Assembly (NCBI GenBank): GCA_018241565.1
Contig: JAFEDO010000031.1
Coordinates: 1 to 33,104, forward strand
From: Pseudomonadota bacterium
Lineage (GTDB): Bacteria; Pseudomonadota; Gammaproteobacteria; JAFEDO01
DNA length: 33,104 nt
Reading direction: 5' to 3'
Positions 3,698 to 21,132 of the stretch are shown piece after piece. How positions within the stretch are numbered: the stretch's first letter is position 1; each line of letters begins with the position of its first letter. The notes under the pieces were generated by a model that saw nothing but the letters and a program-made list of their open reading frames with translations, did not search any database and was not told the origin of the DNA. The translations under genes and the position numbers were made by a program.

Positions 3698-3842
3698 GTA
3701 TAATTCTAAAGAGTTGCTATACTGTGGCTCTGCTTTTTTGTCGTTAGTGTTGTACGCAATGTATATTAGAAATAAAAAAACCAACTGAAATGAATGTCAG
3801 AATGTGGTTTTAAAAGGATGTGTTCTAGGGGATATTAAAGTG

Positions 3843-4865
3843 ATGTATTATTCGGCTCTACCAGCTTGTTATTTTCCAAGTACGACTTTCTTCGTAGATG
3901 ATAGCCGAGAATTTTTGGTTAATTTTACTTTGCAATTGGAAGATAGCTTAGCATTTCAAGTATATGACTCACCCTATGATGCATTAGATGCTTTGTATGC
4001 TTCTCGTCAAACACCAGATTATTTAAGTCAACGTTGTATCACTGAATACTTAGATAGTCGTGCGTGGCCAATGACGAATCAAACCGTTAATTTGAATTTA
4101 GCAGCTATACATTCTGAAGTTTACAACCCACAAAGATTTTCAGAGGTTTCTGTCGTCGTTGTTGATTATGCAATGCCAGGCATGAATGGTTTAGATTTTT
4201 GTCAGCGAATACAAAACAGTCCTGTTAAAAAGATTTTATTAACAGGACGTGCAGATGAAAGAACAGTTTTAGAAGCATTTAATGAAGGATTGATTGATCG
4301 TTATATTGAAAAAAATATTCCTAATGTTGCGACAGTGATCAAACATGCAATTCAAAAATTACAACGACAATATTTTCAAGGTATGTCGGATCTTATTATT
4401 CGCATGGTTTCAGTAACTTCTCCGACTTGTTTGCAAGATGTCCTTTTTGCTCAGTTTTTAAAAAAAATATGTGATGAAAATGATGTGGCAGAATTTTACT
4501 TAACAGAAAATAGCGGAAGTTTTTTATTATTAGATAAAGATGCCAATTTGAGTTGCTTAATTGTAAAGAATCGACAAGATTTAAATTTACATTATGAAAT
4601 GGCTTTAGATAACAAAGCCCCAGAATCTGTTTTAGACGATTTGAAATCAGGTAGAAAAATCCCTTATTTTTCCGATAATGAAGGTCAAAAAACATCAGAA
4701 TGGTCTGATTGGTCAACTTTTCTTAGACCTGCTCAAGTCGTTCAAGGATTAGAAAATTATTACTACACTATCGTTAAAGATCCCATCGTGTTTAATATTC
4801 AAAAAGAAAAAATCACTTCTTATAGTGAATATCTGAAACTCAGTCGAAAGAAACGCAGATTCTAA
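3843..4865 (+). CDS. Atypical response regulator with long receiver insertion and unknown output domain
   Basis: A CheY-like receiver spans about residues 12-170: acidic pair D19/D20 in FFVDDS, phospho-acceptor D108 in VVVVDYAMPGMNG, T134 in ILLTGRAD and K157 in RYIEKN. About 45 extra residues (roughly 55-100) lie between the first helix and the phospho-acceptor strand, much longer than in ordinary receivers. Residues 175-340 form an output region that I cannot assign: no helix-turn-helix, GGDEF or EAL motif is visible, and it ends in basic SRKKRRF. No histidine kinase is adjacent. I chose ATG 3843 (AGGGG upstream) over GTG 3804, since the receiver begins right after it. The role is probably signal-dependent protein interaction, which is inference. 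Confidence 0.8.
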   Translation: MYYSALPACYFPSTTFFVDDSREFLVNFTLQLEDSLAFQVYDSPYDALDALYASRQTPDYLSQRCITEYLDSRAWPMTNQTVNLNLAAIHSEVYNPQRFSEVSVVVVDYAMPGMNGLDFCQRIQNSPVKKILLTGRADERTVLEAFNEGLIDRYIEKNIPNVATVIKHAIQKLQRQYFQGMSDLIIRMVSVTSPTCLQDVLFAQFLKKICDENDVAEFYLTENSGSFLLLDKDANLSCLIVKNRQDLNLHYEMALDNKAPESVLDDLKSGRKIPYFSDNEGQKTSEWSDWSTFLRPAQVVQGLENYYYTIVKDPIVFNIQKEKITSYSEYLKLSRKKRRF

Positions 4866-16815: not shown

Positions 16816-16915
16816 TTTTAAAAAAACGATTAGAATGGCCATTCCAAAAAAAGGCGTGTGAATGATAAGGAGGCTGTTCCACAATAATCAAACCCAAGAT
16901 GTACAGGGGGTTCTC

Positions 16916-17248
16916 ATGCCAAATAAAAATAATAAATACTCTAATACTGATATTTTTAAAGAATTAGGGTTTAGTGAACAAGAAGCGGGTAATCTAAAAG
17001 TGCGCTCTAAGTTGATGCACGAGATTACTCAGTATATTGAGTCACAAAACATTACTCAGGTAGAAGCAGCAGAGCGATTTGGTGTTTCTCAACCGAGAAT
17101 CAGCGATTTAATGCGTGGTAAATTACACGTATTCACAGTGGACACCTTAATCAATATGTTGCACAGAGTAGGGTATAACGTTCAACTCAATGTCTTGCTG
17201 CCAAATTTTGCCGGTGGAAAAGAAGAGCTTAAGACTCGAGAAGGATAG
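16916..17248 (+). CDS. XRE-family helix-turn-helix regulator (HigA-like, HTH_37 type)
   Basis: A 110-residue DNA-binding protein. The core KVRSKLMHEITQYIESQNIT, followed by QVEAAERFGVSQPRISDLMRGK and FTVDTLINMLHRVGYNV, is typical of HTH_37 antitoxins that pair with Gp49/HigB-like toxins. ATG 16916 has AGGGGG five bases upstream; an alternative ATG at 16862 adds 18 residues. A perfect palindrome GAATGGCCATTC lies at about 16831-16842, upstream of the gene, and could be its operator. The expected partner is not upstream on the same strand. A HigB-like gene lies downstream in the opposite direction, across a repeat. It begins about 100 bp after icd and may be cotranscribed with it. Confidence 0.85.
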   Translation: MPNKNNKYSNTDIFKELGFSEQEAGNLKVRSKLMHEITQYIESQNITQVEAAERFGVSQPRISDLMRGKLHVFTVDTLINMLHRVGYNVQLNVLLPNFAGGKEELKTREG

Positions 17249-17421: not shown

Positions 17422-17805
17422 CTAGACCACAGAACTTTCCGGAAAAAAAAGAGTGCGTAATTGATGACGTACTTTTTCAAGTTGTTGTTGTAGTTGCTCA
17501 TCAGATTCATACTGACAAACATGTAATATATAGATGCATTCTCTGAAGTGTGGGATGAAAGGTATTGTTTGAGAAATTGCAGCTAAATGATCGACTCTGT
17601 CTAAGTAAAAAAGTCGATAATCTCCACAAATGAGTAATTGCATTTCTTTTAAATGAGGATCGATAAATGACAGCGAGCGCCACAATAATGGTGGAACTCC
17701 GCTTAATAAGCGGTCTAATTGGAATCCTGCGGCTTCCCGAACTTGCTTTGGAAGAGACTTTAAATCATGCAGGGAAGTCCCTTTCCAAATGATATTTTTC
17801 TTCAT
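17422..17805 (-). CDS. HigB/Gp49-like RelE-superfamily protein (possibly inactive toxin)
   Basis: The 127-residue protein matches the phage-derived Gp49/COG4679 toxin pattern: IIWKGTSLHDLKSLPKQVREAAGFQLDRLL at the N-terminus, LICGDYRLFYLDRV in the centre, and CIYILHVCQ near the end. In active relatives the last motif continues as FQKKT/S; here it reads HVCQYESDEQLQQQ, so the basic residues are missing, and the central loop is longer. The usual partner is an HTH_37 regulator directly after it; here that gene is convergent, 173 bp away. ATG 17805 is preferred to TTG 17838. No Shine-Dalgarno site is visible, and the promoter predicts an almost leaderless message. Confidence 0.72.
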   Translation of the reverse strand: MKKNIIWKGTSLHDLKSLPKQVREAAGFQLDRLLSGVPPLLWRSLSFIDPHLKEMQLLICGDYRLFYLDRVDHLAAISQTIPFIPHFRECIYILHVCQYESDEQLQQQLEKVRHQLRTLFFPESSVV

Positions 17806-17814
17806 AGGGCGCGC

Positions 17815-17843
17815 AATATACAAAAGTTTATATGGCAAGTAAA
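17815..17843 (-). promoter_or_regulatory. Predicted promoter of the HigB-like gene
   Basis: On the minus strand TTTACT (17838-17843) and TATATT (17815-17820) are spaced by exactly 17 bp. A start seven bases after the -10 would fall only about three bases before the ATG at 17805, so the mRNA would be nearly leaderless. Confidence 0.55.
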
Positions 17844-17971: not shown

Positions 17972-18793
17972 TTAGGTGCTGGTTTCTGCGTTGACTTGGT
18001 ATTTTTCTCCATCTTCTACTCTCATTGCCGTTAATTGATTTCCCCAAACACAACCGGTATCTAGCGCAATGACGTGAGGAGTATGAGTTTCTCCATTAAG
18101 AGCAGCCCAGTGGCCAAAAAGAATGTCAGTATTTTTTAAGGCTCGATTAGGGCATTGGAACCAAGGCATATAATTTTCAGGGATTTCAGTTAAACCTTTA
18201 TTGTAATGTAAATCCAATTCTCCATCTGCTTTGCAGATCCGCATGCGAGTAAAATAATTAGTGATGAGTCGATATCGCTCCCAACCAGTTAATGATTCTT
18301 GCCACTGTGTGGGTGTGTTGCCGTACATATGCTTTAAAAGTTCTAAATACTGTTGTTCGCTTTGTAAAATGGTTTCAATTTCTTTCGCGTAATTTTGTGC
18401 TTGTTCCAAATTCCATTGCGGTGCGATGCCAGCGTGAACCAGAATGCTATTTAGACGGTGATCATAATGCATCAGCTTTTGTTGGCGTAACCAATGACAT
18501 AATGACTCACAATCGGGTGCGTTTAAGATCGGATGTATCGTATCTTTTTCACGAATGGGAATAACACCGTAAGCCACAGCAAGTAAATGTAAATCATGAT
18601 TGCCAAGTATTACGATGGTAGATTTTGGAAGAGATTGAATGAAGCGTAATACTTCTAATGATTGAGGGCCTCGGTTGACGAGATCCCCGGCAAACCATAA
18701 TTGATCATGAGCAGGATCAAAATGAATTTTTTTCAAAAGTTTTTGAAATTCATTAAAACAACCTTGAATATCTCCGATGGCATAAGTAGACAC
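17972..18793 (-). CDS. apaH: Symmetrical bis(5'-nucleosyl)-tetraphosphatase
   Basis: ApaH hydrolyses Ap4A to two ADP and keeps stress dinucleotides low; it can also decap NpnN-capped RNA. The metallophosphatase motifs are in order: GDIQGC at residues 7-12, FAGDLVNRGP in the first quarter, and ILGNHDLHLL after it. The later histidines VHAGIAPQW and GHWAALNG complete the metal centre. At 273 residues it matches the family (280 in E. coli). It is the last gene of the minus-strand lptD-surA-pdxA-rsmA block, 10 bp after the MobH-like gene. The usual partner apaG is absent. Confidence 0.96.
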   Translation of the reverse strand: MSTYAIGDIQGCFNEFQKLLKKIHFDPAHDQLWFAGDLVNRGPQSLEVLRFIQSLPKSTIVILGNHDLHLLAVAYGVIPIREKDTIHPILNAPDCESLCHWLRQQKLMHYDHRLNSILVHAGIAPQWNLEQAQNYAKEIETILQSEQQYLELLKHMYGNTPTQWQESLTGWERYRLITNYFTRMRICKADGELDLHYNKGLTEIPENYMPWFQCPNRALKNTDILFGHWAALNGETHTPHVIALDTGCVWGNQLTAMRVEDGEKYQVNAETST

Positions 18794-18803
18794 AGGTCAA
18801 ATC

Positions 18804-20147
18804 CTATTTTACTTTTGGAGTAATGATAGGTTTGGGAGGTTCTGGTGTATCTATTATTTTTTTTGCTGATGCAATGACTTCTCCAGCGCCATCGATAAAT
18901 TGCTGTTGGAAAGGTACGGATGCGCCTGCTGCAGAAACTTTAGTGAAATATTCTTGTAGTATGGGAGAAGCACGTAAAGTTTCTGCTGTTTGATAAGACG
19001 GTAATGCATACTCTAGTGGCAATATAACACCTTTCAATTCTTGCTTAGCTTCATTGACAAAGGTTTGCATTGTTTCTTGCGCTACAATTCCTAATTTCAT
19101 AAATGAGTCTTGTACGGCTTGCCAGTTTTTATATTGTATGTTTTCTTTTGAAAATAATTTGAAAGCATCAGCAGAAATGATAACGCCGTTCGCGGTATAT
19201 CCTAGTGGCGCTTTATTTAAGTTAAGTTTTTCACTTCCTAAACCTTCACGTACCCAGCGCAAAAATTCTACGCCGGCGAGATCTTGTAAAGCGAGATCCG
19301 TCGTATCTGTTTTTGGATTTGAGAAGTAACCTAAAAATGAAGAATCTTTCTTGAGTCCTAAACTATCTTTCAACTCTTTTGGAGGTCGATCTTGCATGTG
19401 TTTTTCAATGTATTGAAAAATAGCTTGGCGATCTGCCCACGGTAAAATAGGGCTCAGAGTGCTACCCGTACGAGTATTGTCATCTAACATAGCCAGCCAT
19501 AACATTAATACATTTTTATTACTGGCAATCCAATTGAAACCATCTTTGGGCATTAATTGTCGCGCTAAAATTTTAGTAACATCTCGTCGAAAAGTTTCTG
19601 GAAAATTAGGTTCAAAGTCATATTTGTAAAAAGCACCTTGAGATAACATTAATCCTTCACAAGGATTCCAATGCTTGACGAATTCGGCGTTGCGAGAATA
19701 GAGAGATATTTTAAGATCTACTAAAACACGACCAACATCATGTAACAAGCTCGCGCTGAATACGGCATATGCCCATAATGCTTGTGCTTTGGTTAATTGA
19801 TTAGAAGTAGGATCTTTTTCATTTGGCAAAAAATAATTTCGACACAAAGGAAGCGCAATAGCCGTACGATCTAAAGCATGATCAAGCAATCCCCCTTTGT
19901 GCGCATAATAACTATGTCGGGTTTCAGGTAAGTGTTGAACGAATTCTGCAAATTGACAAATCAATGAGTGTGCAAGTCTATCAAAATCAGTGTCGGATAA
20001 ACTGAGTAACAGTTGAAATTTTTGTATTTGTGTTTGTCGTTTTTCATGAGAAAGTAAAGATTCAGCAGGTAGAATCAAATGCATGTTGGGGTCAATGGGT
20101 TTTGCTTGAATCGCTTTTTGAATAATGCCTTGAATTCCTTGAAACAT
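18804..20147 (-). CDS. Orphan MobH/TraI_2-domain protein (relaxase-type, HD-like)
   Basis: The 447-residue protein resembles the TraI_2/MobH region of relaxases from SXT-like integrative elements. Residues 75-145 carry GGLLDHALDR (85-94) and SLLHDVGRVLVD (133-144), the HD-type metal-binding pattern of that domain. The second half (LGYTANGVIISADAFKLFSKE, about 310-330) looks like the TraI_2_C domain. A proline-rich tail ends it (PEPPKPIITPKVK). No other conjugation gene, attachment site or integrase is in the window. It occupies the place of apaG between rsmA and apaH. AAAAGGAG lies upstream, so it is well translated. Domestication of a mobile-element protein is likely but inferred. Confidence 0.72.
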   Translation of the reverse strand: MFQGIQGIIQKAIQAKPIDPNMHLILPAESLLSHEKRQTQIQKFQLLLSLSDTDFDRLAHSLICQFAEFVQHLPETRHSYYAHKGGLLDHALDRTAIALPLCRNYFLPNEKDPTSNQLTKAQALWAYAVFSASLLHDVGRVLVDLKISLYSRNAEFVKHWNPCEGLMLSQGAFYKYDFEPNFPETFRRDVTKILARQLMPKDGFNWIASNKNVLMLWLAMLDDNTRTGSTLSPILPWADRQAIFQYIEKHMQDRPPKELKDSLGLKKDSSFLGYFSNPKTDTTDLALQDLAGVEFLRWVREGLGSEKLNLNKAPLGYTANGVIISADAFKLFSKENIQYKNWQAVQDSFMKLGIVAQETMQTFVNEAKQELKGVILPLEYALPSYQTAETLRASPILQEYFTKVSAAGASVPFQQQFIDGAGEVIASAKKIIDTPEPPKPIITPKVK

Positions 20148-20212
20148 AACAGCTCCTTTTATATATGCTTAACCCGAATCCTTCGAGTGTGAAAAAAGCA
20201 TGTCATTATATG

Positions 20213-20995
20213 TTAATTAGGGGTCAAATTGCTAATTTCAACGTAGTTTTTCAAGCTTAATTGTTCAGGACGTAATTGAGGATCGATACCTAAATCTTCT
20301 AGACATTTTATAGGAACTATCCCTTTTAAACAGTTCCTCAGAGTTTTACGACGTTGCTGGAATGCTTGATTAACGATCTTAGCAAAAAGTTCTGGATTTT
20401 CAGCGTGATAAGGTGGTGTTTCATAAGGTGTTAACCGAACGATGGCTGAATAAACTTTAGGAGCTGGCCGAAATGCAGTGGGTGGCACTTGAAATAAAGG
20501 TTCAACTTGGCAATGGTATTGCACCATGACGCTGAGTCTTCCATAAGCCTTAGATCCTGGTGCTGCTGCCAAACGCTCAACCACTTCTTGTTGTAGCATG
20601 AAATGCATATCTTTAATTAAAGATTGAAAAGTAAGCAAATGAAAAATGAGCGCTGTTGAAATATTGTAAGGAAGATTTCCAACGATTCTTAATTTTTTAT
20701 TTGAAGTTTCTAGAGTAGAAAAATCAAATTTCAAAGCATCTGCTTGGTGAATGATTAATTCACCGAGATCAACGCAAGCCATCCGTAAAGGAGAAATCAA
20801 ATCACGATCCAATTCAATGACGGTAAGATGCTTTGTCATCGGTAATAAGACTTGGGTTAATGCGCCTAATCCAGGACCAATCTCAACTATAGCATCATCG
20901 GGTTTCGGATCAATGGCTTGGATAATTTGACGAATGATGTTGGGATCTACTAAAAAGTTTTGTCCGAAACGTTTGCGAGGTATATGAATATTCAT
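20213..20995 (-). CDS. rsmA: 16S rRNA dimethyladenosine transferase
   Basis: RsmA (KsgA) dimethylates A1518 and A1519 in helix 45 of 16S rRNA, a late check in 30S assembly. Diagnostic motifs are RKRFGQNFLVDPNII at the start, the SAM-binding VEIGPGLGALTQVLL (about 38-52), the catalytic NLPYNISTALIF, and FRPAPKVYSAIVRL near residue 200. Length 260 compares with 273 in E. coli. It follows pdxA after an 83-bp gap that is mostly a family D repeat, so the operon order is kept but the junction is invaded. Confidence 0.97.
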   Translation of the reverse strand: MNIHIPRKRFGQNFLVDPNIIRQIIQAIDPKPDDAIVEIGPGLGALTQVLLPMTKHLTVIELDRDLISPLRMACVDLGELIIHQADALKFDFSTLETSNKKLRIVGNLPYNISTALIFHLLTFQSLIKDMHFMLQQEVVERLAAAPGSKAYGRLSVMVQYHCQVEPLFQVPPTAFRPAPKVYSAIVRLTPYETPPYHAENPELFAKIVNQAFQQRRKTLRNCLKGIVPIKCLEDLGIDPQLRPEQLSLKNYVEISNLTPN

Positions 20996-21023
20996 AAATA
21001 TTTTCCAATTGAAAAATTATTCC

Positions 21024-21132
21024 CTCACCCTAGCCCTCCCCCGGAGTACCGGGGGAGGGAATTTTGGAGGGAAGGAACCTAATTATTCCCTCCCCCCGGT
21101 ACCCCGGGGGGAGGGTTAGGGTGGGGGGTGAG
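21024..21132. repeat. Family D inverted repeat overlapping the pdxA end
   Basis: Two family D hairpins head to head: CTCACCCTAGCCCTCCCCCG at 21024, paired in its own half, then a middle of ATTTTGGAGGGAAGGAACCT, then the second half ending GGGTTAGGGTGGGGGGTGAG at 21132. The right half is inside the pdxA reading frame and encodes its last 17 residues. It is larger than the 2849 copy because the middle has expanded. Confidence 0.9.

What the first reader, a model, noticed from the sequence alone, without database searches (positions are those of the whole stretch)
18804..20147. Orphan MobH/TraI_2 relaxase-type protein in the place of apaG
The pattern GGLLDHALDR..SLLHDVGRVLVD and a TraI_2_C-like second half place this protein with the MobH relaxases of integrative elements. 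It sits alone, with a perfect Shine-Dalgarno site, inside an otherwise conserved housekeeping operon (rsmA-apaH) from which apaG is missing. That points to capture of a mobile-element protein, perhaps for chromosomal DNA or nucleotide metabolism (HD-type domains can be phosphohydrolases).
Basis: partly seen in the sequence, partly recalled or inferred. Interest (0 to 1): 0.6.

Follow-up and report, generated by a model that had tools for sequence, protein, structure and literature searches.

The report
Ancient domesticated relaxase beside rsmA
This gene is an old DNA-transfer enzyme (a plasmid-type relaxase) that became a permanent housekeeping-operon gene in Legionella-like bacteria and lost the motif needed to cut DNA, although this copy still keeps a metal-binding site that most of its relatives have lost.

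Summary
A 447-aa gene with a Shine-Dalgarno site lies between rsmA and apaH, scores above cut-off for TraI_2 and TraI_2_C, and is the only such gene in its genome.

It is not a recent or local capture. It is an orthologue of L. pneumophila Lpg2927 and a homologue of C. burnetii CBU0560 (PDB 3KQ5). A profile finds it in 136 of 140 Legionellaceae-order genomes. rsmA-X-apaH is intact in all 30 of those loci laid out. A published in-frame deletion of lpg2927 impairs growth in macrophages.

It does not pass as a MOBH relaxase. The 3H motif (HHH), 30/30 in mobile-element relaxases here, is 0/65 in the rsmA/apaH-linked family (mostly SYY). An arginine absent from all 30 relaxases is invariant there (65/65).

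This copy is special in one way. With one relative, it keeps the full HD metal-ligand set (H90, H136, D137, D239); Legionella has QG at the HD.

'In place of apaG' is half right. apaG is missing here and in most relatives, but one relative has X-apaG-apaH, so apaG was lost separately.

Best reading: an ancient domesticated pseudo-relaxase (HD fold plus TraI_2_C domain), probably binding nucleic acid; residual phosphohydrolase activity in this lineage is possible but untested.

The parts
18804..20147 (-). gene X: 447-aa TraI_2 + TraI_2_C protein, orthologue of Lpg2927, homologue of CBU0560/3KQ5
20153..20158 (-). Shine-Dalgarno AAGGAG, 5 nt before the ATG
   Evidence: sequence
19404..20069 (-). 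TraI_2 (HD-fold) domain, residues 27-248
   Evidence: fold match to 3KQ5 (Z 25.9) and SAMHD1 (Z about 11)
19905..19913 (-). residues 79-81, SYY, at the place of the relaxase 3H motif HHH
19878..19880 (-). H90, first HD-domain ligand (GGLLDH)
19866..19868 (-). R94, invariant in the rsmA/apaH-linked family (65/65), absent from the 30 relaxases
19737..19742 (-). H136-D137, the HD dyad, kept here and in L036 only within the family
19431..19433 (-). D239, presumed last HD-domain ligand
19077..19274 (-). TraI_2_C domain match, residues 292-357
20213..20995 (-). rsmA (ksgA), upstream neighbour, 65-nt gap
17972..18793 (-). apaH, downstream neighbour, 10-nt gap

Best explanation
Shown by sequence: X belongs to an ancient chromosomal offshoot of the MOBH (TraI_2) relaxase family, carried as a single-copy gene next to rsmA and apaH in Legionella-like bacteria. 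It has lost the 3H motif and carries conserved new residues in its place or nearby (Y80/Y81, R94; most relatives also R187). The HD dyad has decayed in most lineages but is intact here. Inferred: it no longer nicks an origin of transfer. It works as an HD-fold protein with a C-terminal domain that looks like a winged helix and binds nucleic acid (RNA or ssDNA). Its operon with rsmA points to rRNA or ribosome-related work. Since Legionella lost the HD dyad and still needs the gene, the core role is probably non-catalytic. In this lineage the intact H-HD-D set may add a metal-dependent phosphohydrolase activity. My confidence is about 0.85 for 'domesticated, not a relaxase' and about 0.3 for the nucleic-acid-binding role.
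For: Domains over cut-off. rsmA-X-apaH in G024, G041, G063, in nearly all the Legionellaceae loci, and annotated in L. adelaidensis. A match in 136/140 genomes of the order of L. jamestowniensis, one copy each (two split in pieces). Motif tally over 65 distinct family proteins against 30 relaxases: HHH 0 vs 30; R94 65 vs 0; HD dyad 2 vs 29; full H-HD-D set 2 vs 28; position 187 H in 30/30 relaxases, R in 52/65 of the family. The tree puts all 42 non-mobile proteins on one side of a branch (80/72; 84% of bootstrap trees). Purifying selection, dN/dS 0.05-0.12 in Legionella pairs. Model pLDDT 80 matches 3KQ5 (Z 25.9), SAMHD1 HD domains (Z about 11) and the DUF1528/TraI_2_C structure 2IPQ (Z 10.8). 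In-frame deletion of lpg2927 impairs growth in macrophages and is complemented; the apaH deletion shows no defect, the ksgA deletion does (PMC11559062). Both 3H and HD motifs are required for cleavage by the one MOBH relaxase studied biochemically (PMC12857230).
Against: No biochemistry exists for any member that I could find. Nucleic-acid binding is inferred from the fold and operon only. X sits away from rsmA in several lineages (Coxiella-type: between leuS and lnt), which weakens a tight link to RsmA. The branch separating mobile from chromosomal forms has only moderate support. TIGR03760, a relaxase domain model, is passed narrowly.
Confidence: 0.6

Rival explanations
1. X is an HD-type nucleotide phosphohydrolase (for example on Ap4A, (p)ppGpp or dNTPs) working with ApaH. 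The relaxase fold lost DNA specificity and keeps a two-metal hydrolase site.
For: Complete H90-H136-D137-D239 set in the window protein and in L036, which are only 38% identical (157/414); nearest non-family folds are SAMHD1-type dNTPases and the nuclease YhaM; immediate neighbour of apaH.
Against: 63 of 65 family members lack the full set, Legionella having QG, yet the gene is kept and matters there. ApaH deletion has no phenotype in the same assay. It could hold only for this lineage.
Confidence: 0.2
2. X is still a functional MOBH relaxase, a remnant of an integrated conjugative element acting on a chromosomal or trans-acting oriT.
For: Passes TIGR03760 (164.5 vs 161.4) and both Pfam domains; HD dyad and Y174 intact.
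Against: HHH replaced by SYY, PASE by PETR, and the relaxases' invariant H187 lost; MobH cut-off not met; no conjugation genes in the 33-kb contig; same locus fixed across many families.
Confidence: 0.05
3. X is pure structural scaffold or protein-protein adaptor with no nucleic-acid or catalytic role; the conserved YY/R pocket binds a partner protein.
For: Catalytic ligands decay repeatedly while the fold and new residues stay under constraint.
Against: The TraI_2_C domain is kept, and the window copy keeps all HD ligands.
Confidence: 0.15

Closest known systems
Lpg2927 family of Legionella (ksgA-lpg2927-apaH, PMC11559062)
   Same: Same operon position, size, domains, SYY and R94 signature; about 35% identity
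   Different: Legionella has QG instead of HD and often N at D239; litOPAI genes lie downstream there, not in the window
C. burnetii CBU0560, PDB 3KQ5
   Same: Same fold over both domains (Z 25.9), R94 kept
   Different: First-H and HD positions are lost (SLMNEGLLR, LLLEVAH); related Coxiella-type copies sit between leuS and lnt
MOBH relaxases of ICEs and plasmids (PFGI-1 class TraI, MobH)
   Same: TraI_2 + TraI_2_C architecture, HD dyad, Y174
   Different: Relaxases have HHH (30/30), H187 (30/30), no R94, a long middle segment (mostly 570-1000 aa overall), and an oriT/T4SS context
HD-domain phosphohydrolases (SAMHD1-type dNTPases, YhaM)
   Same: Helical HD fold (Z about 11) and H-HD-D ligand set
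   Different: 10-15% identity only; no substrate evidence

Membership tests
MOBH relaxase | TraI_2 domain over Pfam cut-off | tested here: met
   93.9 vs 23.9 bits; TIGR03760 164.5 vs 161.4
MOBH relaxase | NCBIfam MobH (NF041494) cut-off | tested here: not met
   141.4 vs 200
MOBH relaxase | 3H motif (H/Q)-X2-PASE-X-HHH-X3-GG-X3-H-X-L (PMC4036041) | tested here: not met
   QHLPETRHSYYAHKGGLLDHAL; HHH 0/65 in the family, 30/30 in relaxases
MOBH relaxase | HD motif (L/V)-X-HD-(AVLI)-GK | tested here: met
   LLHDVGR, with K replaced by R
MOBH relaxase | Carried on a conjugative element with coupling protein and T4SS | tested here: not met
   Annotated contig genes are housekeeping or other non-conjugation genes; the assembly is incomplete
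MOBH relaxase | Site-specific oriT cleavage | not testable with these tools
   needs purified protein
Lpg2927 / CBU0560 chromosomal family | Position between rsmA and apaH | tested here: met
Lpg2927 / CBU0560 chromosomal family | R94 and Tyr/Phe at 80-81 in place of HH | tested here: met
   R94 65/65; Y or F at 81 65/65, at 80 62/65
Lpg2927 / CBU0560 chromosomal family | Groups with the chromosomal proteins, apart from mobile relaxases, in a tree | tested here: met
   support of the dividing branch 80/72, moderate
HD-domain phosphohydrolase superfamily | H...HD...D ligand set | tested here: met
   H90, H136, D137, D239
HD-domain phosphohydrolase superfamily | HD fold | tested here: met
   SAMHD1 Z about 11, 165-180 residues, rmsd about 4; helical fold, so moderate weight
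HD-domain phosphohydrolase superfamily | Metal-dependent phosphohydrolase activity | not testable with these tools
   needs an enzyme assay

The most novel reading that the evidence does not exclude
A conjugative relaxase was domesticated once at the base of the Legionella/Coxiella-like bacteria, lost its DNA-nicking 3H motif, kept an HD phosphohydrolase site for a time (as in the window lineage), and became a core gene needed for full intracellular growth, with rebuilt Tyr-Tyr and Arg residues serving a new, undescribed role.
Probability: 0.4. Interest if true: 0.65.

Novelty: new variant of a known kind. Interest (0 to 1): 0.42.

Why it matters
The Legionella orthologue is required for full growth in macrophages, and its function is unknown; it has been described only as possibly helicase, relaxase or nickase. 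The motif tally argues against nickase activity in the whole family. It names the residues to test, and the HD-intact copies here and in L036 are the ones in which a catalytic role can be tested directly.

Tried and rejected
A first single-protein scan of named genomes found nothing; the alignment scan worked. Family and order searches around the window's genome, and the orders of G239 and G024, hold one genome each. RsmA and ApaH trees did not fix the window's exact branching. Recent capture rejected: conserved synteny across families. Substitution for apaG rejected: X-apaG-apaH in G078. A nearby ICE rejected: the annotated genes of the contig are not conjugation genes. Foldseek on the whole model gave only 3KQ5 below E 0.001. 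The biochemical MOBH paper (Heilers 2019) is not held, so its residue numbers were not used. Motif columns were not removed from the tree (a few of 408 columns).

Full report
What is there. The ORF at 18804-20147 (-) is real: 447 aa, ATG, AAGGAG 5 nt upstream. It lies 65 nt after rsmA and 10 nt before apaH, in the order lptD-surA-pdxA-rsmA-X-apaH. It scores over cut-off for TraI_2 (93.9 bits), TraI_2_C (29.1) and TIGR03760 (164.5), but under the MobH equivalog cut-off (141.4 against 200). It is the only match in its assembly. The annotated genes of the 33-kb contig are housekeeping and other non-conjugation genes (metK, ahcY, hemCDXY, yifB, icd, parB, lptD, surA, pdxA, argS and others), so no ICE is near.

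It is known. The paper PMC11559062 describes lpg2928 (ksgA), lpg2927 and lpg2926 (apaH) in L. pneumophila. Lpg2927 is a hypothetical protein with possible helicase/relaxase/nickase domains, and HHpred links it to C. burnetii Cbu0560 (3KQ5). In-frame deletion of lpg2927 impairs replication in macrophages and is complemented; deletion of lpg2926 has no effect. The same paper is the only one in the open library that names lpg2927 or CBU0560. Our protein matches 3KQ5 by sequence (E 1e-17) and by fold (Z 25.9).

It is old and vertically kept. Among 94 class relatives 16 have a match, mobile relaxases included. In the order of L. jamestowniensis 136 of 140 genomes have a match, nearly always one (two genomes have it split in two pieces); two of the four without it are 0.5-Mb reduced genomes. 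All 30 loci laid out from that search keep rsmA-X-apaH (L086-L115). L. adelaidensis is annotated the same way. Coxiella-type homologues (L027, L028 with a stop, L031) sit next to leuS, two of them with lnt on the other side or nearby (neighbours named from their sequences). Close Legionella pairs show dN/dS of 0.05-0.12.

It is not a relaxase by motif. The published MOBH motifs are PASE-X-HHH-X3-GG-X3-H-X-L and (L/V)-X-HD-(AVLI)-GK (PMC4036041), and both are needed for cleavage in the GGI TraI (PMC12857230). In 30 mobile-element relaxases HHH is 30/30, H187 30/30, the HD dyad 29/30 and R94 0/30. In 65 distinct rsmA/apaH-linked proteins HHH is 0/65 (mostly SYY), R187 52/65 and R94 65/65. R94 also occurs in 10 of 14 relocated homologues. 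The tree puts all chromosomal proteins on one side of a branch, with moderate support of 80/72. One domestication is the simplest reading.

What is special here. Only the window protein and L036 (MAG CSMAG_131), 38% identical, keep H90, H136, D137 and D239. Legionella has Q-G at the dyad; another clade keeps D137 but not H136. L021, which groups with L036 in the tree (100/97), has lost the dyad, so losses happened more than once. Either the window lineage keeps an ancestral phosphohydrolase site with a use, or it is simply slower to decay; two lineages cannot decide.

apaG. PF04379 is absent from the window's assembly (86% complete) and from 32 of 36 genomes tested. In G078 the order is X-apaG-apaH. 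X therefore stood beside apaG, and the loss of apaG is a separate event.

Structure and mechanism. The model (pLDDT 80) has an N-terminal HD fold (SAMHD1-like, Z about 11) and a C-terminal domain matching 2IPQ, DUF1528/TraI_2_C (Z 10.8). The order of its helices and strands looks like a winged helix. From this and from the operon I infer a nucleic-acid-binding, mostly non-catalytic role. These steps are inference. No activity has been shown for any member.

Limits. The residue match between D239 and the last HD ligand rests on the alignment. Coordinates of the model were not available for checking the pocket. The literature search covers open-access papers only.

Noticed in passing
window 16862-17248 (+) and 17422-17838 (-): An antitoxin-like HTH_37 gene (76 bits) and a Gp49/HigB-like ORF (21.8 bits, just under the 23.9 cut-off) lie tail to tail on opposite strands, an unusual layout for a toxin-antitoxin pair; the ORF directly follows apaH.
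   Followed up: partly
window 21022-21130: A C/G-rich inverted repeat (CCCTCACCCTAGCCCTCCCCC...) lies between pdxA and rsmA and runs into the 3' end of pdxA. The exact 21-mer occurs once in the assembly; diverged copies were not sought.
   Followed up: partly
L028 (G027): Coxiella-like genome in which the TraI_2 gene has a TAG inside after 128 codons, a likely pseudogene.
   Followed up: no
L026 (G092:C29): Genome G092 holds a second, very diverged TraI_2-like protein (415 aa) besides its main copy, with both motifs lost.
   Followed up: no
window 3804-4865 (+): 353-aa protein with a response-regulator receiver-like stretch in its middle (42 bits); the rest matched no family.
   Followed up: no
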